Shown here: one piece after another, positions 19,847 through 41,957 of the stretch
Layout: the number at the start of each line of letters is the position of its first letter
Position numbering within the stretch: position 1 is the first letter of the stretch
NCBI GenBank assembly: GCA_902767775.1
Contig: CACXIP010000023.1
Span: 1 to 52,661, forward strand
Origin: an uncultured Prevotellaceae bacterium
Lineage (GTDB): Bacteria; Bacteroidota; Bacteroidia; Bacteroidales; Bacteroidaceae
Direction: 5' to 3'
DNA length: 52,661 nt
Program-made: the position numbers and the translations under genes
The notes under the pieces: generated by a model
The model's input: only the letters and a program-made list of their open reading frames with translations
Database searches by the model: none
Told to the model about the DNA's origin: nothing

Positions 19847-20095
19847 GTTGGTCGTTTAGGGGGTTGGTCGTTTGGTCGTTTGGGTTTTAGGAGTTTAGGA
19901 GTTTAGGAGATTAGGAGTTTAGACATATGACTTTTTGGTCATTTAGTCGTTTGGTCGTTTGGGTTTTAGGAGTTTAGGAGTCTAGGAGATTAGGAGTTTA
20001 GACATATGACTTTTTGGTCGTTTGGGGGGGTGGTCGTTTGGGCGTTTGGGCGTCAAGCGTAGCTTAAACCTCAAATCTTAAATCTCAAATCTTAA
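19847..20095. repeat. Mixed octamer, GGAGTTTA and TCAAATC arrays
   Basis: Octamers (19847-19887, 19938-19968, 20018-20053) alternate with two near-identical GGAGTTTAGGAG...GACATATGACTTTTTGG blocks (about 19888-19936 and 19969-20018). The stretch ends with AAGCGTAGCTTA, the edge of the 79-bp element, and TCAAATC words. No gene is present. Confidence 0.85.
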
Positions 20096-20104
20096 ATCTC
20101 AAAT

Positions 20105-21345: not shown

Positions 21346-22032
21346 TCATTCCTTGTGGAGAATAATGTCCACAATTCTCATGCCATCGGTAATGTTGACA
21401 ATGCCATTATTGTCCATATCGGCATACTTGAAGATGAACTCGGGATAGATTTCGCCAAGGACGTAGCTGACCACCAGCATGACATCTGTCACATCTACAT
21501 TCTTGCTGAAGTTCACATCACCCATCATCGTCTGAGTTATGTTGATGTCGAACTCAGAGGGTTCACAATCAATGGCAGCCCCATCGACACGGCTGAGGAC
21601 GACCTCTGACAGCTTGCCCGTCAATACATCCTCTGCTGTCCACTCTTCTGGCGCTTTCATGGTGAATGTCATCAATGGTCCTTCATTTCCATTGATGAGC
21701 ACATTGATCATGGAATAGGCCATCACCCTATACCAGCCCTCACCGAGGTCGCGTATAGAAGCGGTCATGTCCGAGTTGCTGTATCTGTCGGAAAAAGTGT
21801 AAGTAAAACGGTCATTTTCATCCGTCGTCAATGTGATTCCATCAGGCAGGAACAGGTCAAACTGAAAACCATTATACTTATCATCCCCCTCATTAGTCAT
21901 TGATATGACCAATGAAGAAGAACCTCCAGCAAAAATGTCTTCAGCCTGAGCAGAAACTGATATTTTATTGGTTGTCTGGCTCCATGCCATCACCGGAAGA
22001 ATCACAGCGAGCAACAGTATGTACTTTCTCAT
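21346..22032 (-). CDS. Secreted cohesin-like protein with C-terminal dockerin-like repeats
   Basis: The 228-residue product has a signal peptide (MRKYILLLAVILPVMAWSQ), a beta-rich domain of about 140 residues, and a dockerin type I-like pair at about 170-226. The beta-rich part (KISVSAQAEDIFAGGSSSLV, FQFDLFLPDGITLT) has the look of cohesin or related adhesin domains. In the dockerin-like part the first loop, GDVNFSKNVDVTDVM, has lost some calcium ligands; the second, ADMDNNGIVNITDGM, keeps the DxDxNG pattern. It is divergent from the giant protease gene, which also ends in dockerin-like repeats. The cohesin call rests on fold pattern only and is less certain than the dockerin call. Confidence 0.72.
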   Translation of the reverse strand: MRKYILLLAVILPVMAWSQTTNKISVSAQAEDIFAGGSSSLVISMTNEGDDKYNGFQFDLFLPDGITLTTDENDRFTYTFSDRYSNSDMTASIRDLGEGWYRVMAYSMINVLINGNEGPLMTFTMKAPEEWTAEDVLTGKLSEVVLSRVDGAAIDCEPSEFDINITQTMMGDVNFSKNVDVTDVMLVVSYVLGEIYPEFIFKYADMDNNGIVNITDGMRIVDIILHKE

Positions 22033-22269: not shown

Positions 22270-25200
22270 ATGAGAGACAGAGTAAGCACGATTATCATCG
22301 TATCGGCTTGTCTGCTGACCATGGGTTGGGGCAATCTGCATGCCAATCCTATTTCAGCAGAGGAGGCCATGCAGAAAGCCATGTCGATGATGAACTCGGG
22401 GCAGACACATCGAATTCGCGGCAACAGACAGCTCACACTCGCCTATGCCCATGCCGACAGGAGCAAGTCCGACCAACCGTTGTTGTATGCTTTCAACATA
22501 TCCGATGACAATGGTTTTATCATCGCCTCAGGCGACGACCGTGCAGAACCAATCCTGGGATATTGCGACCAAGGACAGTTCAACCCCGACTCCATCCCCG
22601 TCAACATGAGGGAATGGATGGACGGATTGGCCGAAGAAATCGCCTGGGCACAGGACAACGGATACGCATCAGCCACCAGCAGCACACCCTCAAATGCCAA
22701 GTCGACCATCAACTATCTGGTGAAGTCCACATGGGGGCAGAACACCCCTTTCAACAATCTGTGCGCCTTTAATGGGACAATCTGTGCGGCAGGATGCGTG
22801 GCCATCTCCATGGCACAAATCATATATTACTGGGCTTCTGTTGGCAAAAATGGCCAATATTTCCGCAGAGGCAGCAAGGCACTGCCTGCCTACACCACAA
22901 AGACTATGGGTTACTCTGTAGGAGCTCTAAGTGCGTTGAGCAGTTTCAGTTGGACGGACATGACCGATGAAAAGCCCACCACCAGCGCCTCCAAAAAAGC
23001 CGTGTCACAACTTATCCGCTACTGTGGGCAAGCCGTACAGATGGACTATGCGGAAGGCACCTCCATCGCCTCGAGCAGCAAAATAGCGCCAACACTGAAG
23101 GATATCTTCGGCTTCAACTTCAGCATGAAAACCGCCAATGCCAACGACATGACCACCACCCAATGGAACGACTTGATCTATAACGAACTGGCAGCGGGCA
23201 GGCCTGTCATCATGAATGGCTCAAACCCCAACGGCGGTGGCCATGCCTTCATCTGCGACGGCTACAATGCCTCCAACAGCAAGTTTCATTTCAACTGGGG
23301 ATGGGCTGGATATTGTGATGGATGGTTTGCGATGAACGCCCTCGTTGTCGACGGATCCTCTTACAACAACAGCAAGACGGCAATCTACAACATCGATCCC
23401 TTTGACATCAGTGCCTATGCCTTATTGTCATCCGATGCGACCACATTGACATTCTACAACGACGCCAAGCGCAACAGCCGCACCGGCACAGTATATGAGC
23501 TCAACACAGGGCAGACCGCCCCGGGATGGAGCAGCAAGAAAACCATCAAGAAAGTAGTGTTCGACAGTTCGTTTGCCTCTTATACCCCCACCTCCACCTA
23601 TGGATGGTTTCTGGAACAGAGCGTACTGACCACCCTGACCAATCTTGCCAACCTCAACACATCGCAGACAACCAACATGGCAAGGATGTTCAAAGGATGC
23701 ACCAGTCTAAAAGCCATCGACCTCAGCAAGTTCAGCACCGCCAAGGTCACCACTATGGCCGAGATGTTCTACGGCTGCACCGGACTGACGAGCCTCGACC
23801 TCACCCCGCTCAACATGTCGGCAGTCACCAACACCACCTCGTTGGCATCGGGCTGCACAGGAGTGCAATCCGTCACCCTCCCATCCACCGCCCCCACCGA
23901 CCTCAACGCCTATGCCTTCAGCAATGTTGGCACCTCGGCAGCGCCCTGCAAAATCACGGCACCATCAGGTTTCAATTTCGGTGTCAACACCGCTGTTATC
24001 AGTTTCAAGTGGAAAAGTGGATATTTCTATCTGTCAGGAGCAAAAGCCCCATATGCTTATATGGAAGGCACACAAATCAATTTCTGCTATGATGCCAATG
24101 CGTGGACACGTTCCAGCACACCCTACCCCTTGAACTCAGGCACCACCAACCCAGGATGGTATGGTCAGGACGAAGCTATCACCACCATCGTCTTCAACAG
24201 CGCATTCGCATCAGTCAGACCCACCAGCACCTACCGATGGTTCTCCGGCATGGCAAATCTCACCAAAATCACAGGCCTCTCCTACCTCAACACCTCTGAG
24301 GTGACCAACATCACAGCCATGTTCTACCAATGCGGCAAGCTGACCGACATCGACCTCAGCACCATGGACTTCAGCAAGGTGACTTCCTCGAGCTATTTCA
24401 TGAGCAGTTGCAGCGGCCTGACCAAACTGACCCTTCCCGCATCGGCTACCGGACTATACACCAACGCCTTCTCGGGAGTAGGCACCGCCTCTGCGCCCTG
24501 CATCGTCACGGCACCCAACGGTTTCAACTTCGACACCGACACCTCCGGGCTCACCTTCAAGTGGAAGGGCGGAGTATTCTATCTCACAGGCACCAAGACG
24601 CCATATGCCATCCTGTCGGGCAACCAACTCACATTCTATTATGACGACACAGCATGGTCGAGAGGCACCACCTTCTATTCCCTCAACACAGGCAGCACCA
24701 ACCCAGGATGGTATGGTCAGGTCGAAGGAGTCACCACCGTTGTCTTCAACAGTGCTTTTGCGTCAGCCCGTCCCACATCCACCTACCGTTGGTTTGCCGG
24801 CATGTCGAATCTCACCAAAATCACAGGCCTCACCTACCTCAACACCTCTGAGGTGACCAGCATGGTTTATATGTTCTACAACTGCAGCGCCCTGACCAGC
24901 ATCGACCTCAGCAAATTCAACACAGCCAAGACCACCAGCATGGCATATATGTTCTTCGGTTGTCAATCGGTCAAGAGCCTTGACCTGAGCAAGTTGAATA
25001 CAGCCAACGTCACCTCTTTGAACTATATGTTCAGCGGTTGCAGCGCACTGACCAGTCTCGACATGAGCAGTTGGGACATGGGCAAAGTCACCTCCTGCTC
25101 CTATATGGCTAAAGACTGCAGTCAGGTGAGCAGCGTCAACATCCCCGCCTCCATGCCCAACCTCAGTGCAGCCTCCTTCTACGGGATAGGCAGTGCCTCG

Positions 25201-27606
25201 TCGCCCTGCACCATGAACGCCCCTGCCTCATACGACTTTGGAACAAGCACCAACGGACTCTATTTCAAATGGAACAACGGCATATTCTTCCTCAAGGGTT
25301 CCAAGACGGCATATGCCTATGTCTCTGGTAACCAACTGACGTTCTGTTATGATGCCGACCCATGGACACACGGCAGTCCAATCGCCTTGAACGCCGGTGC
25401 CACCAACCCCGGATGGTTTGGAGAGAAAGAGAACATCACAACAGTAGTCTTCAACAGCGCATTCGCATCGGTCCGTCCCACATCCGCCTACCGATGGTTC
25501 TACGGTATGTCGAATCTCACCAAAATCACTGGTATCTCCTACCTGAATACCTCAGAGGTGACCAACATGCTGTCCATGTTCTACGGCTGCAGTGCCCTGA
25601 CCAGCATCGACCTCAGCAAGTTCAACACTGCCAACGTGACCAACATGTCGTATATGTTCTACAACTGTGGGGCACTGACGTCACTCAACCTGAGCACGTT
25701 CAACACTGCCAAAGTGACCACCATGGCCTATATGTTCTATGGTTGCAAGTCGGTCAAGAGCCTCGACCTGAGCTCGTTCAACACTGCCAACGTGACCAAC
25801 ATGGACCAAATGCTCTACAATTGCAGTGCCTTGACCAGCATGGACTTGAGCAATTTTGACATGGGCAATATCACCACCATGAACTACCTGTTGGGTGAAT
25901 GCAAAAATGTGAAGAGCATCAGCATCCCATCCACCATGCCCAACACCACTTCCTACGCCTTTTACAACATAGGAAGTGCCTCTGCACCATGCATCCTGAC
26001 CGCTCCCGCCTCATACAATTTCGGAATCGACACCAACGGACTTTACTTCAAATGGCAGAGTGGTGTCCTCTTCCTCAAGGGGTCTAAGACATCGTATGCC
26101 TACATCGACGGCACCCAACTCAATTTCTGCTACGATGCAGAACCGTGGGCACACGGTTCCACCCCCTATCCCATGAACACGGGCAGCAACGCTCCCAAAT
26201 GGTCGACGAGCAATCCAGACATCACCTCCGTGGTATTCAACAGCAACTTCGCTGCCGCCCTTCCCACCTCTACCTATATGTGGTTCTCCGACATGGCCAA
26301 AATCACCAAAATCACAGGTCTGAACTACCTCAACACGGAAGAGGTCACCAACATGGGCAAGATGTTCTACAACTGCAGTGCCCTGACCGGCATCGACCTC
26401 AGCCAGATGAGCACCCTCAATGTGACCAGCACCAACTCGATGTTCTACGGATGCAGTGCCCTCAAGACTCTTGATGTAACCAATTTCAACACGAGCAACA
26501 TGACCAATTTGGGGTATATGTTCAGTGGCTGCACCAATCTTGGAACTCTCGACGTGAGCAATATGGAAATCAACCCATCAGCCACCACCTCATACATGTT
26601 CAGAAACTGCACCTCACTTGCGTCCGTCAAACTGAACAATTCCTTCAGTTTCGTCAACGAAAATGCATTCTATGGCGTGGGACTGAGCACGGCACCCTGC
26701 ATCATCACCTCGGCCGATGGTTGCAATTTCGATACTGATGTCATCCAACTTTACTTCAAATGGAAGAGCGGATATTTCTTCCTCAGCGAAACCCGGGTGC
26801 CCTATGCCTACATCGACGGCACGGAGTTTATCCTCACTTTCGATGACAAGCCATGGACACACAACACCACTGTCTACAAGATGAACAGCGGCACCACCTC
26901 TCCCGTATGGAAAACGGCAGTCAGCACCATCAAGAGTGCCAGCATAGATGAAAGCTTTACCGACTACTATCCTGTCAGCACCTATCAATGGTTCTACGGC
27001 ATGAGCGAGATGACGGAAGTCAAGGGACTGGAATACCTCAATATGCAGGAACTGGAAAATTCCAACCAGATGTTTATGGGTTGCAGTTCACTGAAAAGCA
27101 TTTCAGTGCCCTCTAACTTCAACACCATCGGCCTCCATATGTTCCGCGATTGCACGTCGCTCGAATCGGTGGAGATTCCGTCGAGCGTCACCAGCATTGG
27201 CAACTATGCCTTCTATAATTGCAGCAACCTGACTTCCGTGACTGTCGACATCACCATGCCGCTCGACATCACCACCTATGTGTTCAGCAACCGCAAGAAT
27301 GCCGACCTTTATATTCCAGCCGGCTACAAGTCATTGTATGCCCAGGCGGCCTATTGGAAAGAGTTCAAAAACATGATGGAGTTTGGATTTGCTCCTGGTG
27401 ACGTCAACCATGATGGCAGAATCAACATCGCCGATGTCATGTGTGTTGTCAACAACATATTAGGAAAAGAAAATGTCATTTGCTATGTCAGCGAAGGTGA
27501 CTTCAACCACGACGGCATCATCAATGTGACCGATGTCATGGATATTTTGCATGTCGTCTTGAACAATAGTCCCAACGATGCTGCCAACAATCAGAAGAAT
27601 AATTGA
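22270..27606 (+). CDS. Giant secreted C10 (streptopain-type) cysteine protease with DUF285/BspA-like repeats and dockerin
   Basis: The 1778-residue exported protease has a signal peptide (about 1-25) and a propeptide of the streptopain inhibitor-like kind (about 26-130, including LLYAFNISDDNGFIIASGDD). The C10 catalytic domain spans about 140-380, with nucleophile Cys176 in AAGCVAISMAQIIYYW and His325 in GGGHAFICDGY. From about 385 to 1590, six tandem modules follow, each with a PYAYxxGxxLxFCYD strand block and DUF285-type repeats (LNTSEVTNMxxMFxxCSALTSIDLSKF). A leucine-rich-repeat segment (about 1610-1700) and two dockerin-like repeats (GDVNHDGRINIADVM, GDFNHDGIINVTDVM) end the protein. BspA-type repeats bind host or bacterial surface partners. 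The histidine catabolic genes start 30 bp downstream. Confidence 0.92.
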   Translation: MRDRVSTIIIVSACLLTMGWGNLHANPISAEEAMQKAMSMMNSGQTHRIRGNRQLTLAYAHADRSKSDQPLLYAFNISDDNGFIIASGDDRAEPILGYCDQGQFNPDSIPVNMREWMDGLAEEIAWAQDNGYASATSSTPSNAKSTINYLVKSTWGQNTPFNNLCAFNGTICAAGCVAISMAQIIYYWASVGKNGQYFRRGSKALPAYTTKTMGYSVGALSALSSFSWTDMTDEKPTTSASKKAVSQLIRYCGQAVQMDYAEGTSIASSSKIAPTLKDIFGFNFSMKTANANDMTTTQWNDLIYNELAAGRPVIMNGSNPNGGGHAFICDGYNASNSKFHFNWGWAGYCDGWFAMNALVVDGSSYNNSKTAIYNIDPFDISAYALLSSDATTLTFYNDAKRNSRTGTVYELNTGQTAPGWSSKKTIKKVVFDSSFASYTPTSTYGWFLEQSVLTTLTNLANLNTSQTTNMARMFKGCTSLKAIDLSKFSTAKVTTMAEMFYGCTGLTSLDLTPLNMSAVTNTTSLASGCTGVQSVTLPSTAPTDLNAYAFSNVGTSAAPCKITAPSGFNFGVNTAVISFKWKSGYFYLSGAKAPYAYMEGTQINFCYDANAWTRSSTPYPLNSGTTNPGWYGQDEAITTIVFNSAFASVRPTSTYRWFSGMANLTKITGLSYLNTSEVTNITAMFYQCGKLTDIDLSTMDFSKVTSSSYFMSSCSGLTKLTLPASATGLYTNAFSGVGTASAPCIVTAPNGFNFDTDTSGLTFKWKGGVFYLTGTKTPYAILSGNQLTFYYDDTAWSRGTTFYSLNTGSTNPGWYGQVEGVTTVVFNSAFASARPTSTYRWFAGMSNLTKITGLTYLNTSEVTSMVYMFYNCSALTSIDLSKFNTAKTTSMAYMFFGCQSVKSLDLSKLNTANVTSLNYMFSGCSALTSLDMSSWDMGKVTSCSYMAKDCSQVSSVNIPASMPNLSAASFYGIGSASSPCTMNAPASYDFGTSTNGLYFKWNNGIFFLKGSKTAYAYVSGNQLTFCYDADPWTHGSPIALNAGATNPGWFGEKENITTVVFNSAFASVRPTSAYRWFYGMSNLTKITGISYLNTSEVTNMLSMFYGCSALTSIDLSKFNTANVTNMSYMFYNCGALTSLNLSTFNTAKVTTMAYMFYGCKSVKSLDLSSFNTANVTNMDQMLYNCSALTSMDLSNFDMGNITTMNYLLGECKNVKSISIPSTMPNTTSYAFYNIGSASAPCILTAPASYNFGIDTNGLYFKWQSGVLFLKGSKTSYAYIDGTQLNFCYDAEPWAHGSTPYPMNTGSNAPKWSTSNPDITSVVFNSNFAAALPTSTYMWFSDMAKITKITGLNYLNTEEVTNMGKMFYNCSALTGIDLSQMSTLNVTSTNSMFYGCSALKTLDVTNFNTSNMTNLGYMFSGCTNLGTLDVSNMEINPSATTSYMFRNCTSLASVKLNNSFSFVNENAFYGVGLSTAPCIITSADGCNFDTDVIQLYFKWKSGYFFLSETRVPYAYIDGTEFILTFDDKPWTHNTTVYKMNSGTTSPVWKTAVSTIKSASIDESFTDYYPVSTYQWFYGMSEMTEVKGLEYLNMQELENSNQMFMGCSSLKSISVPSNFNTIGLHMFRDCTSLESVEIPSSVTSIGNYAFYNCSNLTSVTVDITMPLDITTYVFSNRKNADLYIPAGYKSLYAQAAYWKEFKNMMEFGFAPGDVNHDGRINIADVMCVVNNILGKENVICYVSEGDFNHDGIINVTDVMDILHVVLNNSPNDAANNQKNN
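23415..27050 (+). repeat. Six tandem coding repeats (DUF285 modules) inside the protease gene
   Basis: Module starts lie near 23415, 24045, 24595, 25305, 26090 and 26795. They share recurring segments coding for FNSAFASVRPTSTYRWF, GMSNLTKITG and YLNTSEVTNM. Modules 3, 4 and 5 are longer because they hold extra 23-24-residue units. High DNA similarity between modules should allow recombination that changes copy number. Confidence 0.85.
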
Positions 27607-27636: not shown

Positions 27637-29340
27637 ATGAAACAGAGACAGATTGTGGAATGCGTGCCCAACTTCAGCGAGGGCCGCAACCCAGAGACCA
27701 TCAGGCAGATTGCCGCAGAGATAGAAGGCACCGCCGATGTGCGGTTGCTCAACATCGACCCGGGCGAGGCCACCAACCGCACTGTCATCACCTTCGTTGG
27801 CAGTCCTGATGCCGTGGTGGAAGCCGCCTTCAAGGCTGTACGCCGCGCCGGTGATTTGATTGACATGCGCAAGCACCATGGTGCCCATCCCCGTATCGGT
27901 GCGACCGACGTGCTCCCGTTGATTCCCGTCAGCGGCATCACCCTCGAGGAATGCGCCGAACTCGCGCGCCAACTCGCCAAACGTATCGCCGATGAACTTC
28001 TCATCCCCTGCTACTGCTATGAGGCTGCCGCATTCACTGAGGAGCGCCGCAACCTCGCCGTATGTCGCGCAGGTGAGTACGAGGGAATCCCCAAAAAACT
28101 TAGCACACCCGGCAAGGAGCCTGATTTCGGCAGCCGTCCGATGGATGAAGTCATTGCCCGCAGCGGTTGCACCGTAGTGGGTGCCCGCGACTTTCTCATT
28201 GCCGTCAACTTCAACCTCAACACCACCTCCACACGCCGTGCCAACGCCATCGCCTTCGATGTGCGCGAGAAAGGCCGTCCCCGCCGTGAAGGACATCCCA
28301 TCACCGGCAAACCGATGAAAGATGCCGACGGCAACACCATCATGATACCCGGCACGCTGAAGAAGACCAAAGCCATCGGATGGTACATCGACGAATATGG
28401 CATCGCACAGGTGTCGATGAACATCACCGACATCAACGTGACCCCACTGCACAAGGCTTTCGACGAGGTGTGCCGATGCGCCCAACAGCGCGGCATCCGC
28501 GTCACCGGTACCGAGATAGTGGGTCTTGTGCCCAAGCGCACGCTGATAGAGGCAGGGCGCTATTTCCTGCAAAAGCAGCACCGCTCCACCGGCATCCCCG
28601 AGGAAGACATCATCCATATAGCCATCCACTCCATGGGACTCTCCGACCTCCGTCCGTTCAATCCCCGCGAGAAAGTTATCGAATACTTGCTGGAGGACGC
28701 CAACCGACAACCATTGCTCGCCGACCTTACCGTAAAAGCGTTCGCTGAGGAGACTTCACGTGAGTCGCCAGCCCCCGGCGGCGGCACCATCGCAGCCTAT
28801 ATGGGTGCGCTGGGCGCAGCCTTGGGCACCATGGTAGCCAACCTGTCGGCTCACAAGGCAGGATGGGACGAGCGGTGGGAGGAGTTCTCCATCTCCGCCG
28901 ACAAAGGACAGCAACTCATGAGCGAACTGCTCCACCTCGTGGATGAAGACACCGCAGCCTTCAACCGCATCATGGCAGCCTTCGGCATGCCGCGTGGCAC
29001 TGAGGAGGAGAAAGCACTCCGCAGCAATGCCATTCAGGAAGCCACATTGTATGCCACCGAGGTGCCCCTGCGCACGATGAAAGCCGCCGCTGCAGCCCTC
29101 CCCCTCTGCCGTCTGATGGCAGAGACCGGCAACCCCAACAGCGTGTCGGATGCCGGCGTGGGAGCCCTTGCCGCCCGTTCCGCTGTTCTCGGTGCCGGAC
29201 TCAACGTGAAAATCAATGCCGCCCAACTGAAGGACCGCCAGAAAGCAGAGGCCCTCATCGCCGAGGCGAATGCACTTATCGCTCAAGCCATTGAGGCAGA
29301 GCGCGACATCCTTGCCATAGTGGAAAAATTGATCGGATGA
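27637..29340 (+). CDS. ftcD: Bifunctional glutamate formimidoyltransferase / formimidoyl-THF cyclodeaminase
   Basis: The 567-residue enzyme moves the formimino group from formiminoglutamate to tetrahydrofolate (N-terminal ~330 residues, opening RQIVECVPNFSEGRN) and then releases ammonia to give methenyl-THF. The cyclodeaminase part is C-terminal, from about residue 370, with ESPAPGGGTIAAYMGALGAA. It is the mammalian-type fusion, giving the end step of the hut route without hutG. The gene starts 30 bp after the giant protease stop and leads hutU, hutH and hutI. Confidence 0.94.
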   Translation: MKQRQIVECVPNFSEGRNPETIRQIAAEIEGTADVRLLNIDPGEATNRTVITFVGSPDAVVEAAFKAVRRAGDLIDMRKHHGAHPRIGATDVLPLIPVSGITLEECAELARQLAKRIADELLIPCYCYEAAAFTEERRNLAVCRAGEYEGIPKKLSTPGKEPDFGSRPMDEVIARSGCTVVGARDFLIAVNFNLNTTSTRRANAIAFDVREKGRPRREGHPITGKPMKDADGNTIMIPGTLKKTKAIGWYIDEYGIAQVSMNITDINVTPLHKAFDEVCRCAQQRGIRVTGTEIVGLVPKRTLIEAGRYFLQKQHRSTGIPEEDIIHIAIHSMGLSDLRPFNPREKVIEYLLEDANRQPLLADLTVKAFAEETSRESPAPGGGTIAAYMGALGAALGTMVANLSAHKAGWDERWEEFSISADKGQQLMSELLHLVDEDTAAFNRIMAAFGMPRGTEEEKALRSNAIQEATLYATEVPLRTMKAAAAALPLCRLMAETGNPNSVSDAGVGALAARSAVLGAGLNVKINAAQLKDRQKAEALIAEANALIAQAIEAERDILAIVEKLIG

Positions 29341-29438
29341 AAGATGAAGGATGAAGGATGAAAGAATAATTGTCTGACCTGTCTGACTTGTCAGAATTGT
29401 CCGACTTGCCAGAATTCCAACTATAAAAACCAAACGCC
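29341..29438 (+). repeat. Nonamer word repeats between ftcD and hutU
   Basis: GAAGGATGAAAG-type words are followed by TGTCTGACT, TGTCAGAAT, TGTCCGACT and TGCCAGAAT in a row (about 29371-29417). The stretch ends AAAACCAAACGCC just before the hutU ATG, resembling a single octamer unit. Confidence 0.7.
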
Positions 29439-31451: not shown

Positions 31452-31572
31452 GATTTGAGATTTGAGATTTAAGCTACGCTTGACAACTAAACGACCAAAC
31501 GACTAACCCCCCAAACGACCAAACGACCAAACGACCAAACGACCAAACGACTAAACAACCAAACGACCAACC
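31452..31572 (+). repeat. GATTTGA words, edge of the 79-bp element and octamer array before hutH
   Basis: TTTGAGATTTGAGATTTAAG is followed by CTACGCTTGA, the border of the 79-bp element without its core. An array of about ten AAACGACC-like units (31487-31570) then runs straight into the hutH ATG at 31573. Confidence 0.85.
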
Positions 31573-33063: not shown

Positions 33064-34310
33064 GCTCCAAACTATTCATCAACATAGGACTGCTCTGCTG
33101 CATCCACCCACGGGAGAAACTGTTTCTTCAAGGGGAAGAGATGAGGCAAATGGGCGTGCTCCACAACGCATGGCTCGCCATCGATGGCGACCGCATCAGC
33201 GACTTCGGCACGATGGACAACCTCGACCAATCCACCATGTCAACAGCAAAGGTCATCGATGTTCATGGCGGTGCGGTGCTGCCCTGCTGGTGCGACCCCC
33301 ACACACATCTGGTCTATGCCGGAAGCCGCGAGGGGGAGTTTGTTGACAAAATAGAAGGACTCACCTACGCTGAGATAGCCCGCCGTGGCGGCGGCATCCT
33401 CAACTCCGCCGACCTGCTGCATGAGATGACAGAAGACGAACTGTATGAGGCTGCCATGGGACGGCTCCGTGAAATGGCAGCGGCTGGTACGGGCTGTGTG
33501 GAAATCAAGAGCGGATATGGTCTCACCACAGAGGATGAACTGAAAATCCTGCGCGTCATACGTAGGATGAAACAGACCTCACGGGTGCGCATCATGTCCA
33601 CCTTTTTGGGCGCACATGCCGTGGGGAGAGCATACACCGGACGGCAAGACGAGTATGTAGACCTGGTGGTCGACGAAATGATTCCTGCCGTAGCAGAAGA
33701 GCATCTCGCCGACTTCATCGACGTATTTTGTGATGAGGGATTCTTTACCCCAGAGGAGACCGACCGCATCCTGGCAGCAGGGGCACGTTATGGCGTGCGT
33801 CCCAAGATACATGCCTGTGAACTCGCGTCATCGGGCGGTGTGGAGATAGGAGTGAAACACCATGCCCTGTCGGTGGACCATCTGGAGAGTGCGAGCGACA
33901 ACGACCTCGCCCTACTGAGGGGAACAGCCACGATGCCGACGCTGCTCCCCGGCACCTCTTTCTTCCTCAACATGCCCTATGCCCGCGGGCGACAAATGAT
34001 TGACAGCGGACTGGGCATTGCACTCGCCTCTGACTGCAATCCCGGCAGCACGCCATCCTCTGACATGAAATTCGTAGTGTCATTGGCTTGCATCAAGATG
34101 CGGCTGCTGCCCACTGAGGCCATCAATGCCGCCACGCTCAATGCCGCCTATGCCATGGGCCTCGCCGAGGACTATGGTTCAATTGCTGTGGGGAAGAAAG
34201 CCAATCTGCAGATTACCGTCCCCATCCCCTCCATCGACTATATCCCCTATGCCTACACACGACCTATCGTGCAGCAGGTGATATTGGATGGAGAATCACC
34301 TTGTGAGTGA
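33060..34310 (+). CDS. hutI: Imidazolonepropionase
   Basis: The 416-residue metal-dependent amidohydrolase opens the imidazolone ring to give formiminoglutamate, which FtcD uses. The metal motif DPHTHLVYAGSREGEF is near residue 78, with GTGCVEIKSGYGL near 143 and the later LASDCNPGSTP near 322 holding the metal aspartate. It overlaps hutH by four bases (ATGA), so translation is coupled. Its last 15 bases overlap the end of sprA on the other strand, leaving no room for a terminator. Confidence 0.95.
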   Translation: MSSKLFINIGLLCCIHPREKLFLQGEEMRQMGVLHNAWLAIDGDRISDFGTMDNLDQSTMSTAKVIDVHGGAVLPCWCDPHTHLVYAGSREGEFVDKIEGLTYAEIARRGGGILNSADLLHEMTEDELYEAAMGRLREMAAAGTGCVEIKSGYGLTTEDELKILRVIRRMKQTSRVRIMSTFLGAHAVGRAYTGRQDEYVDLVVDEMIPAVAEEHLADFIDVFCDEGFFTPEETDRILAAGARYGVRPKIHACELASSGGVEIGVKHHALSVDHLESASDNDLALLRGTATMPTLLPGTSFFLNMPYARGRQMIDSGLGIALASDCNPGSTPSSDMKFVVSLACIKMRLLPTEAINAATLNAAYAMGLAEDYGSIAVGKKANLQITVPIPSIDYIPYAYTRPIVQQVILDGESPCE

Positions 34311-37300
34311 GAACTTCAGGCTAAGGCCGAAGTCGCGGGTGGTGGTGGGATAGCTGCTGCTGGTGAGCAACGGCGTGTTGGTCTGCTGGTCGTAGTAGAA
34401 GGTCATGGTCATGAGCTTCGAGATGGTGTAGTCGGCATTGAAGGAGAACTTGAACGCGTTGTTTCCGCTGCTTGCCTGACTCGTCATGGTGGCGATGTCA
34501 CGCGTGATGCTCGCCTGCTTGCGGTAAGAGAGGTCGAAACGCAAATTGAGGTCGTGGTTGAAGTTCTTGGAGTTGGAGTTTGACTTCGACGACGACTGCT
34601 TGTTTGTATTGCTGTTCTCGTTTTCGTTACCATTGTTCTTTTTCTTGGCTCCCCTCACCTTGCGTCCTCCGCTGCTGCCGAAAAGTTTGAAGTCATTGAT
34701 TTTATAGCCCATGCCGACCACCCAGTCGTGGCTGGAGGTCTCATTGATCTGCATACTGGTGGTGCTCAGGTTGAGCGAGCGTGTCGACTTGTACTCCAGT
34801 TTGCAAGTCATGTTGTTCTGCAGTGTCACCTCAAGACCCAGCAGCGGTGAGAACGACTCGTTGATGCTCACGGTAGAGATGTTGAACATGCTGTTGGGCA
34901 CAGGATTGCTTGTGGTGGCGTCGGTGATGAAGCCCAGGTTGCCCATATACTCCTGCCAGGTGCTGAAACTGGCGTAAGAACCAATGGCGAAGACACTCGT
35001 GTATTTGTGGTTGAGGTTGACGCTCTTGAAGAGGTCTTGGAACAGCGACAACTTGCTCAGTCCGCTGTATCGGATGTTCCAGTTGGGCAGCATGCGGCTC
35101 ACGGCAGGGAAGAGGTCGAGCGACGAACCGCCCATGTTGGTGTAGGCAGAGAGGAATGCCGGTATCATAACATCCGAACTGTAGAGCCCCACCCCTCCGT
35201 TGGCGGCATCGAAAGTCTCACCAGCCCTTGATGTTCCGGCAGGATAGGTGGCACCCACATACTGGCTCTCCACCCTTTGGCGGAATGACTCCAGCGAGTT
35301 GCAGAAACGCTCAAACGACTTGCTGTGGTAGCCGTCGTTGGCGTTGCCCATGCTCTCTAACGAGCTCTTCAGGGATATGGTGGTCATGGTGAACTGCCCG
35401 GTGCGTGTGGTGGGATTGCCCTGATACATATACTGCACGCTGCGGTTGTCGGTCAGCGTGTGGCTTGCGTTGAGGTCAATCTTGAAGTCACGGGCAGGTT
35501 CGAGCGTCACCTTCAGCTGCAGGTCCTTGGTGAGGCTGGTGGTGGCAGGTGTCGCCACATTCTCGTTGTTCAGCAGCCAACCGTTCTCACGCGCCTTCTC
35601 GATATAGCTCTCATCGTTGAAACCGAAGGCGAAGTCGAGTCCCGGACTCAGAATGTCGCCACCGCGCTGTCCAAAAGCCTTGCCGATGGTGGGCATGAAT
35701 CCCGGCAGCGACATCTGCCGCTGGTTGCGGTAGGTGAAGTTGATGTTGCGCACCATCATGAGTGCTCGTGCGAACACCTGTGCCGTCTTATACCATGTCT
35801 TGTCGTCGAGCGGTTCCTTCGGGGTGACCGACAGTTTGATGGTGACCGCCGAGTCGAGTTTGTTGAACACGTTGATTTTGTTGTCGTCCACCACCTTGTA
35901 TTTCACAGGGATGGTCTTTCCGTCCTTGTCCTTCGCAGAGACGATGAGCCTGCGGCTCTTCTTGCTGTGCGTCACGGTGATAGACGTGTCGGCCTTGATG
36001 GTGATTTCCTTCTCAAACGTATTCTTGTTCTTGGGCAGGTTGGACTTCTGCTTGTCGTCCTCCGCCTTCTCCTTGTCGTCCTTGCCCTTCTGGTTCTTCG
36101 CCTGGTTGTTCTTTGCCTGGGTGCTCTTTGTCTGCTGCTTGCTCTTGTTGCTTGAGCGGCTGGTCGACTTGTTGAAGCGCTCGTTGGTCTTCTTCAGGAA
36201 CGGTATGTGGTCGTAGAGTTTCTGCATGTTGAACGTACCGTTGATATTGAACGTACGCGCGTTGGAGATGGTGTTGCCCAGCGACGTGCCGTCCTCCAGG
36301 TCAGTGCCGCGCACCCATCTGTAGTTGGAGTCGTAGGTCAAATCGGAGGTGACCCAATCAAAGATGGGCAACAGGTTGAGCGGCACATGGTAGGATGCCT
36401 TGAAACTCTGGCCATAGTCGAGAGGAGCTCCGAAGTTCTTGATGGAGGTCCATACGGAGTCCTTCCATGCCGAGTACTCATCGGGATAAAGGCTTTTGTT
36501 GACCGGGGTATAGGGTTCCTCTATCTCCGCATGGGTGCCGCTGTTGAAGTTCACGTGCAGGTTCTTGGTGAAGTCCCATCTCAGCGAGAACTCCCTGTTC
36601 CAGAGGAACTGTTCGCTGAAGGTGAGCGGCAGTTGCGCTCCCTCGAGGTTCTCCATGTCGCGCTCCTGCAGTTCGTAGTAGATACGGCGTAGGTCGGTGT
36701 TGAACGTGATGTTCTGCGGCATATAGTTGAGGCCGAACTTCTTGGCTATCTCCAGCCATTTCGACTTCGACTTGAGTTTCTTGAATGGTTCCCATGCCTT
36801 GTATACCGGAGTCCATGAATAGGACATAGACCCGTTCCAAGAATCCTCATTCTCATAGATGGTCGTCTCGCCCGATTTGTGGCTGTGTGCATGGCTGTAT
36901 GAGAAGGAGAAGTTGGCTGGGTCGTAGGGCATGGGATGTCCCTTGGTGGCGATGCCCACCCTGACATTGGAGAGCGAGAAGTTGGTGTTGGTCGACTGTG
37001 TCACGGCGATGGACTCGATGGAGTCGCGCTCATGTTTCGACTCGGTAGCCTCAAGGGCGTCTTTCAGCCTCATGTCGGTGTCGAGCGGATTGTATTTGGG
37101 CTTGCTTTTCTCTTTGGTGACGGAGTAGTAGAGCGGTGCCGACACCTTCGCCTTGTCGGGGAAGAACTTGCCCAGTTCGAGGCTGGTGGTGACCGACACG
37201 TTCTGGAAGTCATCCTGTGCCCTGGCAGCCACACCGTCCTCCAGACCTCCGAATCCCTCGCTGCGGAGGCGTCCGGTCATGTTGACGGTACCGAAGTCAG

Positions 37301-40300
37301 ACAGTTGCACATTGAGGTTGCCCTGTGCAGCCCATCCTCCCTCGTTGGTATATTCCTTCATTCGGAGCTCGTTGACCCATACTTCGCCCGACTTCACCTC
37401 TCCTGAAAGGTTGCGCACACCGATAATCATCGTCTTGACCTCTCCGAGCGACGGGTTACCCATGATGCTCACCTTGTTGGAGGGCTTGTCTTCATCGTAG
37501 GCGGTATAGAGCTGGTTGTAGGACGCTGCCCCCGCTGCCTTCGCTATATTGCGCTCCTTCTTGAGCGAGGTGAAGATGCTCAGTGGGATGTCGAGCATAT
37601 TCTCCTCCGGCCACACGATGCGCTTGTCGGCGACGGAGTATTTGTCATAATGTCCTTCTGGAGTCAGTTTGAGCGGTATCTCATACTCGTAGTAGTTGCT
37701 CTTGTAGTCGCTTCCGAGTCTGATGAATACCGCCAGCTGGTTGTCGGCGAGGTTGGTGATGTTCTCATTCAGCGTATTGGCGTGTACGAACATCTGCAAC
37801 CTCTTGTATTGTCTCAGGTCGAGCGTAGTGTTCTTGTAGACGCATTTCGACTCACCTGTGCCCAGGTCATTGACGATGATGTCGAGTGCCTGCTCATTGC
37901 TCTCCACCAACTGCGGCTGGGTGGGGTCCTGCACACGTGAGATGCCCGGCGGCAGGATGTAGTTGACCGGCGTCTTGTCGTTGTTCTCCTCGATGTTGAC
38001 CGCACTCACCGACATATAGCCTGAGTTGGACGCGCTGCTGGTGAGGTTCTGCGAATAGACGCGCCACTCGCCGCGCACGAGGTCGAGGCTTCCGAAACGC
38101 ATGACGATGGGGTGCTTGAAATTGGTGAGGAACATACGCATGAAGCGCACGGAGGTGAAGTCGCTGATGGAGCCTATGCGTTTCTCGAATCGGTCGAGTG
38201 GGATGCGGAACTGATACCACGTCACATCGTAGTGGTCGCCGTTGCGCAGCGAACCGCTTCCCACGCGGCTGTCGACGATGAAGTTGTGGCCCACCACCAT
38301 ATCCTCGGGCCTGACGGAGATATGATACTGGTAGTATTTCTCATACTCGTTGAGGGTGAAGTCCTGGTTGATATCCTCCACATCCGGGGTGGTCTTGTAC
38401 GACGTGTCGTAACTCTCGCTGCGCATGTCGGAGTCGGGCGAGTTGCCCTGCGGGTTGTTGATGCGCTTGTAGCGCTGGAGGATGGATGCCTGCACCTGGT
38501 CGTAGTCTCTGCCCCTGAAATAGTGGTAGTCGTCGTTGGCGGGGTCTGCCCAGATGCTGTCGAACACCTCGGGCGACACCTTCCCCTGTATGGCGGTGAG
38601 GAAGTCCTGATAGGACTCGTAGCTCTGCTCCTCTTGGTCGTTGAGACCATTGAAGCCCACGTCCTGAACAATTCTCGACCCGCTGGTGGTGACGAAGGCG
38701 TAGGTCTGGTCTGTCGTCTGAGTTGGAATCTTGCCCCACTGGGTGAAAGAGTATTTCCCAGACCCATCGACCATCAGTCCGCTCTCATGGAATTTCTTTC
38801 CGTCGTGGAGGATGTCCTCGCTTACCTCACCGAGGTTGATGTAGAAGTCGCCGCCATACTCTGAAGCATCGGCCTGACCATTGGTGTAGATGAAGGGGTC
38901 GAGGAGCCAGAACTCGATGTACTCGATGTTGGCGGTCTCGAAGTCGTTGGTGTCGAGTTTGCGCATCATGCCACCCCACTTCGTCTCCGGCTGGTCGAAT
39001 CGTCCTGCGCTGTTGAGGTCTGGGTTGAAGTTGTAGGGACCACGCTCATTGGGATAGAAGGCGAGGTTGAGCACGGGCAGTGTCGAGGTGGCGCCACTAT
39101 ACGAGCTTTGGTCGCGGTTGGGGTACAACTCGCGCACATACACCTCGCGCACATAGTGGTTGGACAACTGGTTGAGGTCGCTCTTGATGTGGCTCGGTGT
39201 GAGCGACGAACTGCGGCGTGTGAAGAGCGGGTCGATGTTGTACCATGCCAGGAGGCTTCGGTTGAATCCGCTGGAGAGTCCCGTCTTGTCCTTGTACTCA
39301 TTGAACATGGTGGGCACGCTGGAGATGACCCATGAGGTGGGCGTCGACACGTCGATGGTGTTCTTGGTGTTCTCGAAGTCATCGAGATAGGAGGCGTTGT
39401 CCTGTGTGCCGTGCGCCTTTCCTGCGATGAGGTGGGCAAACTCAGCCGAGAGCGATATGTTCGACGGCTGTGTGACATGGAGCAGCGGTATCTTGTTGAG
39501 CATGTTGGTGAGCCACTGGCTCTCCTTCTTCCAGTTGAGGTTGACACCCCACAGCGTGTTGTTGAGGGGTTCAGCTCCCATCGCCACCTTGGTGGTGAGT
39601 GCCTGCTCTGAGATATGGCGCAGCGTACCGCTCATCTGGAAGTTCTTGCTGAAGTCATACTCCCAGTTGACGCCGAACATGGTCTTTCGCGACTGTCCGT
39701 AGTCGGTATTGCTCTCATACGACGCACTGACCGGTGTTTCCGCATCGAGGATGCTTTGGTTGATGATGGTCACCTCGCCGGCTGAATAGTCGACCGTATA
39801 GTCGGAGTTCTCGGTGAGGGTGACACCACCCGCCGTGACGACGACCGACCCCTGCGGCACGTTGTATGCGCCCAGCGGGATGACATTGGCAGCAGAACCT
39901 CTGAACTGTCCCGTGAGGATATACTTGTCTTTCTCGGCTATCTGCTTCGCCACCGTCCTGGTGGAGTCATAGAGTTCGGTATAACTGTATTTGGCTGCCT
40001 TGTCTGCCGACACGCCCTTGCTCACGAGGAAGTTATAGAGGAATTCGCCGAACGGTTCGACTTTGGGGAGGAAGACACGTCCGTTGGTCACGGTATACCC
40101 TTCCACATAGTCGAAATAGCCGTTGGGGTGGGCCTTCATGTTGTTGTCGAGTCGGTCGGCGTCGATGTCCTTGATGATGGTCTGGTCCTTCACCTGCGGT
40201 TCGGGAATATAGGAGATGTAGACGCCGGCGGTATCGCTTTGGAACTTGATGTCGAGGCGGAACTTATCCTTCTCCACGTTGGAGGCGAGGTAGTAGACGT

Positions 40301-41957
40301 TTTTCATCATCAGGTCCCAGTTGGACTGCATGGGGTTGTTGCTCGTATTCTTGAGCGACTTGACGAAGAGCGCCTTGGTGACATCGGGCACATCGCTGGC
40401 AAACTCACCCACCTGATAGGTGACACCGCCGTAGGTATACTCAAAGGCGATGGCCAGCACCTGGTCGGTCTGGAGGGCGGTCTTCAGCGAGATATATCCG
40501 AGGGCTTTGTTGATGGTGTATTCCGACGAGCTGAGCAGGCGTGCGCTCTCCAACTTCTCATAGTCGGTGCCGCCCACAAACTGCGCATCGAGTATTGTGG
40601 AGGTCTGGTCTATCTCACGTGCGCCGACATACTCACCCACCATCTGCGAGTAGAGCGGGTTGGCGTTGTTGGCCGGCGGCATCGCCCCACCCTCACCCAG
40701 GTCAGCCAGAGCGATGATGTTGCGGGTGTTGTTGGCCGTACCGCTTTTGTTGGTCACCCATATCTCCACGCGGTTGATGGTCACTCCCGTGGTGAGGTTG
40801 GGCAGTGTCTTCATCGCACCGTCGTACTTGTCGCGGAAATAGCGTGCGAGGAAGAAGTGGCGGTTTTCCTCGTAGTTGGCGACATCTATCTCAAAGGGAG
40901 TGTAATGCTTGCCACCCTTCGACGACACGCTTCCCGTCGACGACTTTTTCTGCGACACGACGGTCTGCAGCTTGAGTTTGCCAAACTGCATGTCGGTGCG
41001 GAGGCCGAAGAGAGAACTGGCACCGGTGACGAGTGACGAGTTGCTGGGGAACGACACGTTGCCACCCTCCACGAGTTTGATAATCTCGTCCTCCTTGCCC
41101 TCGTATTTGAGTTTCATGGTCTGGGCATCGAAGTCAAAGGTAGCATCCGTGTTGTAGTTGAGGTTCATGTTGACCTTGTCGCCCACCTTGCCGTTGACGC
41201 TGAGGTTGATTTTCTCATCAAAGTCCATCGTCGTGGTCTTGCGGTTGCGGATGGGCAGCGAGGGGTTGTCGATGTTCTTGAAGGTAGCGCCGAACTTCAG
41301 TTCTGCCGTTCCCTGGGTCTTGATGCGCACGCCACCGGGACCGAAGATTTTCTCTGCGGGTCCGAGGTCGAAATGCATGTCGGTGAAGTCAAACTTCTCC
41401 TTGCCCTTGGTTTTGACCGCCTCCTCATTCTTGGAGTGGAAGAACTTCTGCATCGCCTGTTTCTCGCTCCACTTGAAATACTCGTCGTAGGTCATCATCG
41501 TAGGCGCTCCCACGTAAGACCCACCGATTTTGTTGCCGAAGATATAGCGGTCGATGGTGTCATTGTAGACGACGGTCTGCTGCATGTTCTCAGGCCTTTT
41601 CAGGTCGGCTGGATTCTGTGTGAGGTCGTCATCGGTGATGGGTGTGGTGCGCTGGATGGGCCAGCGGGTGTTGAGCAGTGAATCGGGAATTTCCTCCTCA
41701 TCATCGAGGATGGGCTGCGCCTTGACAACGGGTTTATTCTTGTCATCCGGTTTGTCGTCCGCCGCCTGGTTGTTGGCATTGTTGCCCCGCGCATTGCCGC
41801 GCTGGCGGGTGCGGTCATCCTGATTTCCGGGCCTTGCCTGCTGGTTTTGGCGCTGCCGTGTGCGGTCGTCCTGAGGCACGGAAAGAGCGTTGCCCGCCAT
41901 GATGCTGATGGCGCACAATAAAAAGACAAAGCTCCAAATCCGATGCCTGATATTCAT
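34296..41957 (-). CDS. sprA: SprA, outer-membrane translocon of the type IX secretion system
   Basis: The 2553-residue beta-barrel forms the export pore through which T9SS substrates leave the cell. A signal peptide (about 1-26) leads, followed by an Arg/Gln/Asp-rich stretch with DDRTRQR twice (about 30-55). The family part begins NTRWPIQRTTPI near 95, with long motif-matching stretches such as LDLGPAEKIFGPGGVRIKTQ-like sequence near 200 and LGEVKTMIIGVRNLS near 1505. A lysine-rich low-complexity linker (about 1930-1990) precedes the last barrel part. The C-terminus DFGLSLKFSLTR ends in a barrel strand. It lies 66 bp after ruvA, the usual neighbour in Bacteroidetes. Confidence 0.95.
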   Translation of the reverse strand: MNIRHRIWSFVFLLCAISIMAGNALSVPQDDRTRQRQNQQARPGNQDDRTRQRGNARGNNANNQAADDKPDDKNKPVVKAQPILDDEEEIPDSLLNTRWPIQRTTPITDDDLTQNPADLKRPENMQQTVVYNDTIDRYIFGNKIGGSYVGAPTMMTYDEYFKWSEKQAMQKFFHSKNEEAVKTKGKEKFDFTDMHFDLGPAEKIFGPGGVRIKTQGTAELKFGATFKNIDNPSLPIRNRKTTTMDFDEKINLSVNGKVGDKVNMNLNYNTDATFDFDAQTMKLKYEGKEDEIIKLVEGGNVSFPSNSSLVTGASSLFGLRTDMQFGKLKLQTVVSQKKSSTGSVSSKGGKHYTPFEIDVANYEENRHFFLARYFRDKYDGAMKTLPNLTTGVTINRVEIWVTNKSGTANNTRNIIALADLGEGGAMPPANNANPLYSQMVGEYVGAREIDQTSTILDAQFVGGTDYEKLESARLLSSSEYTINKALGYISLKTALQTDQVLAIAFEYTYGGVTYQVGEFASDVPDVTKALFVKSLKNTSNNPMQSNWDLMMKNVYYLASNVEKDKFRLDIKFQSDTAGVYISYIPEPQVKDQTIIKDIDADRLDNNMKAHPNGYFDYVEGYTVTNGRVFLPKVEPFGEFLYNFLVSKGVSADKAAKYSYTELYDSTRTVAKQIAEKDKYILTGQFRGSAANVIPLGAYNVPQGSVVVTAGGVTLTENSDYTVDYSAGEVTIINQSILDAETPVSASYESNTDYGQSRKTMFGVNWEYDFSKNFQMSGTLRHISEQALTTKVAMGAEPLNNTLWGVNLNWKKESQWLTNMLNKIPLLHVTQPSNISLSAEFAHLIAGKAHGTQDNASYLDDFENTKNTIDVSTPTSWVISSVPTMFNEYKDKTGLSSGFNRSLLAWYNIDPLFTRRSSSLTPSHIKSDLNQLSNHYVREVYVRELYPNRDQSSYSGATSTLPVLNLAFYPNERGPYNFNPDLNSAGRFDQPETKWGGMMRKLDTNDFETANIEYIEFWLLDPFIYTNGQADASEYGGDFYINLGEVSEDILHDGKKFHESGLMVDGSGKYSFTQWGKIPTQTTDQTYAFVTTSGSRIVQDVGFNGLNDQEEQSYESYQDFLTAIQGKVSPEVFDSIWADPANDDYHYFRGRDYDQVQASILQRYKRINNPQGNSPDSDMRSESYDTSYKTTPDVEDINQDFTLNEYEKYYQYHISVRPEDMVVGHNFIVDSRVGSGSLRNGDHYDVTWYQFRIPLDRFEKRIGSISDFTSVRFMRMFLTNFKHPIVMRFGSLDLVRGEWRVYSQNLTSSASNSGYMSVSAVNIEENNDKTPVNYILPPGISRVQDPTQPQLVESNEQALDIIVNDLGTGESKCVYKNTTLDLRQYKRLQMFVHANTLNENITNLADNQLAVFIRLGSDYKSNYYEYEIPLKLTPEGHYDKYSVADKRIVWPEENMLDIPLSIFTSLKKERNIAKAAGAASYNQLYTAYDEDKPSNKVSIMGNPSLGEVKTMIIGVRNLSGEVKSGEVWVNELRMKEYTNEGGWAAQGNLNVQLSDFGTVNMTGRLRSEGFGGLEDGVAARAQDDFQNVSVTTSLELGKFFPDKAKVSAPLYYSVTKEKSKPKYNPLDTDMRLKDALEATESKHERDSIESIAVTQSTNTNFSLSNVRVGIATKGHPMPYDPANFSFSYSHAHSHKSGETTIYENEDSWNGSMSYSWTPVYKAWEPFKKLKSKSKWLEIAKKFGLNYMPQNITFNTDLRRIYYELQERDMENLEGAQLPLTFSEQFLWNREFSLRWDFTKNLHVNFNSGTHAEIEEPYTPVNKSLYPDEYSAWKDSVWTSIKNFGAPLDYGQSFKASYHVPLNLLPIFDWVTSDLTYDSNYRWVRGTDLEDGTSLGNTISNARTFNINGTFNMQKLYDHIPFLKKTNERFNKSTSRSSNKSKQQTKSTQAKNNQAKNQKGKDDKEKAEDDKQKSNLPKNKNTFEKEITIKADTSITVTHSKKSRRLIVSAKDKDGKTIPVKYKVVDDNKINVFNKLDSAVTIKLSVTPKEPLDDKTWYKTAQVFARALMMVRNINFTYRNQRQMSLPGFMPTIGKAFGQRGGDILSPGLDFAFGFNDESYIEKARENGWLLNNENVATPATTSLTKDLQLKVTLEPARDFKIDLNASHTLTDNRSVQYMYQGNPTTRTGQFTMTTISLKSSLESMGNANDGYHSKSFERFCNSLESFRQRVESQYVGATYPAGTSRAGETFDAANGGVGLYSSDVMIPAFLSAYTNMGGSSLDLFPAVSRMLPNWNIRYSGLSKLSLFQDLFKSVNLNHKYTSVFAIGSYASFSTWQEYMGNLGFITDATTSNPVPNSMFNISTVSINESFSPLLGLEVTLQNNMTCKLEYKSTRSLNLSTTSMQINETSSHDWVVGMGYKINDFKLFGSSGGRKVRGAKKKNNGNENENSNTNKQSSSKSNSNSKNFNHDLNLRFDLSYRKQASITRDIATMTSQASSGNNAFKFSFNADYTISKLMTMTFYYDQQTNTPLLTSSSYPTTTRDFGLSLKFSLTR

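What the first reader, a model, noticed from the sequence alone, without database searches (positions are those of the whole stretch)
22270..27606. C10 protease fused to a >1200-residue DUF285 repeat array and dockerin-like end
Seen: a streptopain-type catalytic domain (Cys176, His325), six large tandem modules with DUF285/BspA-type repeats, a leucine-rich segment and two dockerin-like repeats in one 1778-residue chain. Known: DUF285/BspA repeats act in adhesion, and C10 proteases are secreted virulence or nutrition enzymes. Inference: a surface-docked adhesive protease whose repeat number could vary by recombination among nearly identical modules.
Basis: partly seen in the sequence, partly recalled or inferred. 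Interest (0 to 1): 0.7.

Follow-up and report, generated by a model that had tools for sequence, protein, structure and literature searches.

The report
Dockerin-tailed protease beside cohesin-dockerin adaptor
A rumen-type, Prevotella-like bacterium carries a large secreted protein-cutting enzyme whose tail is a 'dockerin' plug, next to a gene for a small protein with the matching kind of 'cohesin' socket, which suggests that this group of bacteria builds plug-and-socket enzyme complexes much as cellulose-eating Firmicutes do.

Summary
In detail: 22270-27606 encodes 1778 aa: Spi-type propeptide, C10 protease domain (Cys176, His325), six modules of a ~78-aa cap plus DUF285/PARCEL leucine-rich repeats, and a dockerin. 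The modules are not nearly identical (35-66% protein); relatives have 1-4, and caps 2-5 are this gene's own expansion.

Most likely the protease plugs into surface cohesin proteins: a Bacteroidota cohesin-dockerin system carrying proteases, a nuclease, LRR proteins and two pectin-type lyases. Binding is inferred. A 2026 paper calls such co-presence in Bacteroidetes 'surprising' and in need of study.

The parts
22270..22347 (+). signal peptide of the protease (residues about 1-26)
   Evidence: read by eye from the translation; no signal-peptide program run
22342..22641 (+). Inhibitor_I69 / Spi propeptide (residues 25-124): zymogen part
   Evidence: Pfam PF13734 E 2.3e-22
22732..23328 (+). C10 (streptopain-type) catalytic domain, residues 155-353; Cys176, His325, Asn342, Trp343
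   Evidence: Pfam PF01640 E 2.3e-50; 155/155, 155/155, 152/155 and 133/155 conserved
23371..24009 (+). module 1: cap (368-447) + PARCEL/DUF285 repeats; its cap is shared with the relatives
   Evidence: profile; 12 of 15 first caps have another first cap as nearest neighbour
24010..26760 (+). modules 2-5 (caps at residues 581, 765, 1001, 1262), a gene-specific expansion
   Evidence: caps 2-5 form one clade; model of module 4 + cap 5: pLDDT 95.1, BspA-type LRR
26761..27375 (+). module 6: diverged cap + BspA-type LRR_5 segment
   Evidence: Pfam LRR_5 best stretch 1599-1691; identity to the other modules 35-39%
27376..27564 (+). C-terminal dockerin, residues 1703-1765 (two calcium-loop repeats)
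   Evidence: Pfam PF00404; alignment of 34 own-genome dockerins
21535..21975 (-). cohesin domain of the divergent neighbour P0002 (228 aa; its signal peptide, by eye, lies at 21976-22032)
   Evidence: AF2 pLDDT 92.1; Foldseek and VIA top hits are cohesins; family profile hits PDB cohesins
21355..21543 (-). dockerin of P0002
   Evidence: Pfam PF00404 E 3.1e-7
34296..41957 (-). SprA, outer-membrane translocon of the type IX secretion system (inferred anchor route of cohesin proteins)
   Evidence: TIGR04189, 2561.6 bits at C23:34305-41612

Best explanation
The gene encodes a secreted C10 cysteine-protease zymogen whose catalytic domain is carried on an LRR (DUF285/PARCEL) array of six modules and which ends in an intact-looking dockerin instead of a T9SS sorting tail. 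The dockerin plugs into a Bacteroidales-type cohesin. Candidate partners in the same genome are (a) cohesin proteins with a T9SS-like tail (DOC-COH-tail or COH-DOC-COH-tail) that would sit on the cell surface and (b) small cohesin-dockerin adaptors such as P0002, divergently encoded 237 bp away, which could extend or branch the chain. The result is a cell-bound, mainly proteolytic cohesin-dockerin assembly, with the LRR array reaching out to or gripping the substrate. Shown here: domains, active-site residues, cohesin homology and predicted fold, co-occurrence and linkage of cohesins with dockerins, tail distribution in this genus. Inferred: that dockerin and cohesin bind, that the short tail is a T9SS signal, surface location, LRR ligand, and nutritional role.
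Against: No binding was or could be tested. PF00963 finds no cohesin in the own genome, and P0002 itself does not reach PF00963. The own genome has no multi-cohesin scaffoldin; the most is two cohesins in one ORF. Only 3 of 10 tails scanned match the T9SS sorting models, all under the cut-offs. The tail rule fails outside this genus: of 13 dockerin ORFs without cohesin in the order-wide loci, one (L224) matches the tail profile and others end, by eye, in classical sorting-tail-like sequence. How a dockerin protein without its own sorting tail crosses the outer membrane is not explained. 26 of 119 genomes have one or two dockerins and no cohesin. Co-occurrence is confounded by phylogeny, genome size and COH-DOC fusions, and A2 contains sequences from some of the genomes counted. 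On the C10 tree the end labels are only weakly clustered (24 of 500 shuffles as low) and the tree is a quick one with 19 of 43 inner branches open.
Confidence: 0.6

Rival explanations
1. A free or self-attached secreted adhesive protease; the dockerin is only a calcium-binding stabilising end with no cohesin partner.
For: PF00963 finds no cohesin in the genome; dockerins without a defined role are reported in rumen Bacteroidetes (PMC7480376 passage); 26 of 119 genomes of the genus have 1-2 dockerins and no cohesin.
Against: The cohesin family missed by Pfam has 15 matches here, one next door, and 34 of 34 genomes with three or more dockerins have it.
Confidence: 0.2
2. The dockerin is itself a sorting or retention signal that replaces the T9SS tail, read by some other machinery rather than by cohesins.
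For: Dockerin end and tail are alternative ends of C10 proteases and swap repeatedly.
Against: Dockerins also occur inside chains that carry the tail, and in the loci these always have a cohesin too (17 of 17), which a pure sorting signal does not predict.
Confidence: 0.1
3. The dockerin serves heterologous cohesins, letting the protease ride on other species' scaffolds (for example rumen Firmicutes).
For: The dockerin is of the Pfam type I family; two of the closest named relatives come from goat omasum and water-buffalo rumen.
Against: Own-genome cohesins exist, and fetched cohesin loci across the order are linked to dockerin genes.
Confidence: 0.05

Closest known systems
Peptidase family C10 (streptopain SpeB, interpain A)
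   Same: Spi-type propeptide, Cys/His/Asn/Trp active site, secreted
   Different: followed by about 1330 residues of LRR modules and a dockerin
DUF285 / PARCEL repeat surface proteins (TIGR02167; Roske et al. 2010, PMC2996958)
   Same: 26-residue repeats, 14 stretches by TIGR02167
   Different: arranged as six blocks each opened by a ~78-aa cap and fused to a protease; no clear excess fold-back over synonymous permutations; the words Bacteroid, Prevotella, protease, dockerin and peptidase do not occur in that paper's main text
Clostridial / ruminococcal cellulosome (dockerin enzymes, cohesin scaffoldins, cohesin-dockerin adaptors; adaptor role recalled)
   Same: cohesin fold, duplicated calcium-loop dockerin, cohesin-dockerin adaptor layout; R. 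flavefaciens dockerin proteins include putative proteases and leucine-rich repeats (PMC4081043 passage)
   Different: Bacteroidota; no cellulase among the cargo scanned; no long scaffoldin in this genome; anchor probably T9SS rather than sortase or SLH
Clostridium perfringens cohesin-dockerin toxin complexes and the Limousia mucinolysome (PMC12997984, passages)
   Same: non-cellulose use of cohesin-dockerin; dockerin-bearing peptidases in Limousia; best structural match of P0002 is a C. perfringens cohesin (2vo8)
   Different: both are Firmicutes; dockerin cargo mainly glycoside hydrolases in Limousia

Membership tests
Peptidase family C10 | catalytic domain with Cys-His (Asn, Trp) at the C10 positions | tested here: met
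   PF01640 E 2.3e-50; conservation counts
Peptidase family C10 | Spi/I69 propeptide | tested here: met
   PF13734 E 2.3e-22
Peptidase family C10 | proteolytic activity | not testable with these tools
   needs expressed protein
DUF285 / PARCEL | tandem repeats over model cut-off | tested here: met
   TIGR02167 413 bits, 14 stretches; PF03382 271 bits, 6 stretches
DUF285 / PARCEL | DNA dyad symmetry of the repeats | tested here: inconclusive
   folding energy of 4 repeat tracts against 60 synonymous permutations each: z -1.29 to +0.61; not the published palindrome method
Cohesin-dockerin system | type-I-like dockerin with two calcium loops | tested here: met
   PF00404; loop aspartates
Cohesin-dockerin system | cohesin in the same genome by PF00963 | tested here: not met
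   0 matches at E <= 0.001
Cohesin-dockerin system | cohesin in the same genome by predicted fold and by a family profile | tested here: met
Cohesin-dockerin system | dockerin-cohesin binding | not testable with these tools
   no complex prediction or assay on hand
Cellulosome | multi-cohesin scaffoldin | tested here: not met
   most in the own genome is 2 cohesins per ORF; arrays of up to 10 exist in other genera of the order
Cellulosome | cellulases as the main cargo | tested here: inconclusive
   no cellulase among the 18 own-genome dockerin or cohesin ORFs scanned, which show S8 and M6 peptidases, endonuclease I, LRR and two pectin-type lyases; 8 further dockerin ORFs are C10 proteases; not every one of the 38 dockerin places was scanned
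T9SS cargo | C-terminal type-A sorting domain on the protease itself | tested here: not met
   ends in dockerin; no Por_Secre_tail
T9SS cargo | T9SS present in the genome | tested here: met
   SprA 2561.6 bits; Por_Secre_tail 8 matches, 4 over cut-off; other components not searched

The most novel reading that the evidence does not exclude
Bacteroidota have their own old cohesin-dockerin surface system that Pfam's cohesin model largely misses, and in this genus it is coupled to type IX secretion: enzymes with a dockerin and no sorting tail are carried out, or held, by cohesin proteins that own the T9SS-like tail (cohesin-mediated piggyback export and anchoring), producing a modular surface assembly of proteases to which this C10-DUF285 protein belongs. 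(Odds lowered from 0.2 because dockerin ORFs of other genera seem to have tails of their own.)
Probability: 0.18. Interest if true: 0.9.

Novelty: new variant of a known kind. Interest (0 to 1): 0.68.

Why it matters
[quoted passage not shown] Another says that the role of dockerin modules in polysaccharide loci of rumen Bacteroidetes is not defined, and found dockerin proteins in rumen Prevotella (PMC7480376, passages). This window supplies a specific pair (dockerin protease and cohesin-dockerin adaptor, 237 bp apart), a cohesin profile that Pfam-based surveys lack, and, for this genus, a tail rule (T9SS-like tail on about half of the cohesin bearers, on no dockerin-only ORF seen) that makes the question directly testable. 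It would add protein digestion, rather than only fibre digestion, as a job of such complexes in rumen-type bacteria.

Tried and rejected
Recombination among 'nearly identical' modules: rejected as stated, identities are 48-73% in DNA; module duplication on a longer time scale is kept.

PARCEL DNA palindromes as a driver of shuffling: four repeat tracts show no clear excess fold-back over synonymous permutations (z -1.29 to +0.61), so not used.

A nutritional operon with the histidine-use genes: ftcD starts 30 bp after the stop and hutU, hutH and a hutI-like gene follow, but BLAST of these against the ORFs of the loci fetched until then found them at no other place (E 1e-20), so it is treated as local context only.

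Cohesin absent: my first reading after one search was 'orphan dockerins'; the fold and profile of P0002 overturned it.

T9SS tail by library models: L150, L149 and L194 of 10 tails matched, all under cut-off. An own tail profile was used instead: 67 hits, 58 ending within 6 aa of the stop; 3 of 7 fetched Por_Secre_tail loci matched at E 0.001-0.03, one of them within 6 aa of the end. Its 11 seeds include five own-genome cohesin ORFs, hence the separate count for other genomes. Dropped before the counts: ORFs open at the 3' end (for example L154), repeats by the last 200 residues, and loci L001-L058 (short or duplicate stretches). Loci L212-L236 came later or served other ends and are not in those counts; the order-wide ones do not follow the tail rule. 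On the C10 tree C10 ORFs with neither dockerin end nor tail were left out: 97 non-own ORFs and own L151, plus L157_5371 (dockerin farther from the end) and L076_6010 (cohesin-like, no tail).

Rows given in part: A1 took 31 rows and A2 took 46 of 48 non-redundant cohesin segments; A3 took 37 of the modules listed.

Paper searches for this architecture or for Bacteroidota cohesin-dockerin systems: C10+dockerin+BspA+protease 0 papers; PARCEL+DUF285 4; dockerin+Prevotella+cohesin 53, 25 listed; C10 protease+leucine-rich repeat+Bacteroid 0; cohesin+dockerin+type IX secretion 7; non-cellulosomal+cohesin+dockerin+Bacteroidetes 8; cohesin+dockerin+Clostridium perfringens+toxin complex 4; C10 peptidase+Prevotella 2; scaffoldin+Bacteroidota+cohesin 7; at least 3 of dockerin, Bacteroidales, cohesin, T9SS 31, 15 listed. 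Most were judged from the listing only; only open-licence papers are held.

Full report

MODULES. Pairwise identity is 35-66% in protein and 48-73% in DNA, so 'nearly identical' is wrong. On a tree of 87 caps, 31 of 75 caps from multi-cap ORFs have their nearest neighbour in the same ORF (shuffled mean 3.4, maximum 13 in 1000 shuffles). Caps 2-5 of this protein form a clade, while 12 of 15 first caps behind a C10 domain pair with other first caps. Among the 16 C10+cap ORFs (three of them open at one end), cap number is 6 here, 4 in one, 3 in two and 1 in twelve. Repeat number thus evolves by within-gene duplication; strain variation is untested.

GENOME-WIDE. PF00404 has 38 matches (one with a stop inside) and PF00963 none in the genome. 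The new cohesin profile A2 finds 15, of which 11 were rows of the profile. The cohesin-bearing ORFs that I fetched are COH-DOC (P0002; 223, 227 and 205 aa; 602 and 620 aa with LRR), DOC-COH-tail (C2 1673 aa with six DUF285 caps, C28 1939 aa LRR, C8 1605 aa S8 subtilase), one COH-tail (C28 414 aa) and one C10 protease with COH-DOC-COH-tail (C5, 1005 aa); a C40 ORF with DOC-COH is cut by the contig end. Contig C28 has four of these in a row with a further dockerin ORF. Cargo with dockerin: C10 proteases (8 of 15 C10 ORFs, L144 included), M6 peptidase, endonuclease I, BspA LRR proteins, a pectate lyase with CBM77 and a rhamnogalacturonan lyase, besides several of unknown type; not all 38 places were scanned by Pfam.

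TAILS. The 15 C10 ORFs end in dockerin (7), in a short 'Y.L.G.RV...KGIYI.NGKKV..K' tail (6), in COH-DOC-COH-tail (1) or in a variant end (1, L151). Over all ORFs with a complete C-terminus in the window and loci L059-L211, the tail is on 23 of 43 cohesin ORFs and 0 of 60 dockerin ORFs without cohesin (Fisher 1.8e-11); outside the genome that supplied the tail seeds it is 18 of 32 against 0 of 33 (9e-8). The tail resembles the T9SS type-A domain weakly: 3 of 10 tails scanned match Por_Secre_tail models, all under cut-off. That it is a T9SS signal is inference; SprA is present, in this window. Dockerin end and tail have swapped repeatedly on a quick C10 tree (12 changes over 46 rows; at least 4 forced by starred branches; shuffled mean 15.2). 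In L060 a close relative of this protease carries DOC-COH-tail instead of a bare dockerin. Against the rule: in other genera 1 of 13 dockerin ORFs without cohesin matches the tail profile (L224), and others end by eye in classical sorting-tail-like sequence, so the partition is a feature of this genus, not of the order.

OTHER GENOMES. Of 119 genomes of the genus at least 90% complete (this one included), 77 have a dockerin match and 51 a cohesin match by A2. All 51 are among the 77, none of the 42 dockerin-free genomes has one; all 34 with three or more dockerins have cohesins, against 17 of 43 with one or two; Spearman 0.85. PF00963, independent of my profile, matches in 33 genomes (28 over its cut-off), all within the dockerin genomes. 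Counts at the cap of scored candidates (about 49 for dockerin, 34 for cohesin) are lower bounds. Relatedness, genome size and COH-DOC fusions inflate these numbers. In 295 genomes of the order, 32, this one included, have A2 cohesins. I fetched 18 such loci from 17 of the other 31 genomes, not the weakest hits; 18 of 18 have a dockerin in the same or a nearby ORF, and several have tandem cohesins, up to 10 in a 1728-aa ORF that runs off its contig (L219). Around the C10-cap proteases of relatives, 7 of 11 loci hold another dockerin or cohesin ORF; L060 is a 4.1-kb contig and L155 begins at a contig end.

MECHANISM. Zymogen secreted through the inner membrane, propeptide removed as in other C10 enzymes (recalled, established for streptopain), LRR array as substrate- or surface-binding arm, dockerin into a cohesin held at the surface by a T9SS-tailed protein, with P0002-type adaptors as extenders. 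The own-genome dockerins share one signature (mostly TDVM, TDAM or ADVM at the last aspartate of each loop), which would suit one binding class; that reading is mine. How dockerin proteins cross the outer membrane is open: either an unknown route, or together with a cohesin-tail carrier through T9SS (the novel case).

LITERATURE. Seen as passages: PMC12997984 ('surprising co-presence ... [quoted passage not shown] PMC2996958: abstract and the first part of one section. A survey by PF00963 alone finds none of this genome's 15 cohesins.

VERDICT. An ordinary-looking domain fusion turns out to be one piece of a probable Bacteroidota cohesin-dockerin system loaded with proteases. New variant of a known kind; binding is the missing proof.

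Noticed in passing
window 27637-34310: ftcD, hutU, hutH and a HutI-like amidohydrolase follow the protease on the same strand, 30 bp after its stop: protease and histidine use side by side; not found in the other loci fetched until.
   Followed up: partly
L219-L236, e.g. L219:4670-9853: ORFs with 3-10 tandem cohesins beside dockerin ORFs in other genera of the order: scaffoldin-like proteins in Bacteroidales.
   Followed up: partly
L174 (G000 C28:10500-23500): Run of ORFs made of cohesin, dockerin and tail parts: COH-DOC 223 aa, LRR-DOC-COH-tail 1939 aa, COH-tail 414 aa, COH-DOC 227 aa, DOC 152 aa.
   Followed up: partly
L194 / L149 (G000 C8:850-11000): S8 subtilase-DOC-COH-tail, then a 205-aa cohesin protein with only half a dockerin, then a C10 protease, in tandem. 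A half dockerin also ends L180:1268-1912.
   Followed up: no
window 19900-20110: Intergenic short direct repeats (14-bp unit at 20063-20106; recurring words such as 'taggagttta' upstream, seen by eye).
   Followed up: no
window 22175 (+) and 22051 (-): TAnnTTTG words of the Bacteroidales -7 promoter kind (motif recalled) in the 237-bp gap between the two divergent genes; chance not excluded.
   Followed up: no
L172 (G142 C48:90000-103000): A 1602-aa C10 protease lies beside a sprA-like ORF; many congeners have C10 open frames of about 1560-1620 codons.
   Followed up: no
L060: Record titled Lachnospiraceae carries a Prevotella-like C10-DUF285-DOC-COH gene: probably a misbinned contig.
   Followed up: no
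   Followed up: partly
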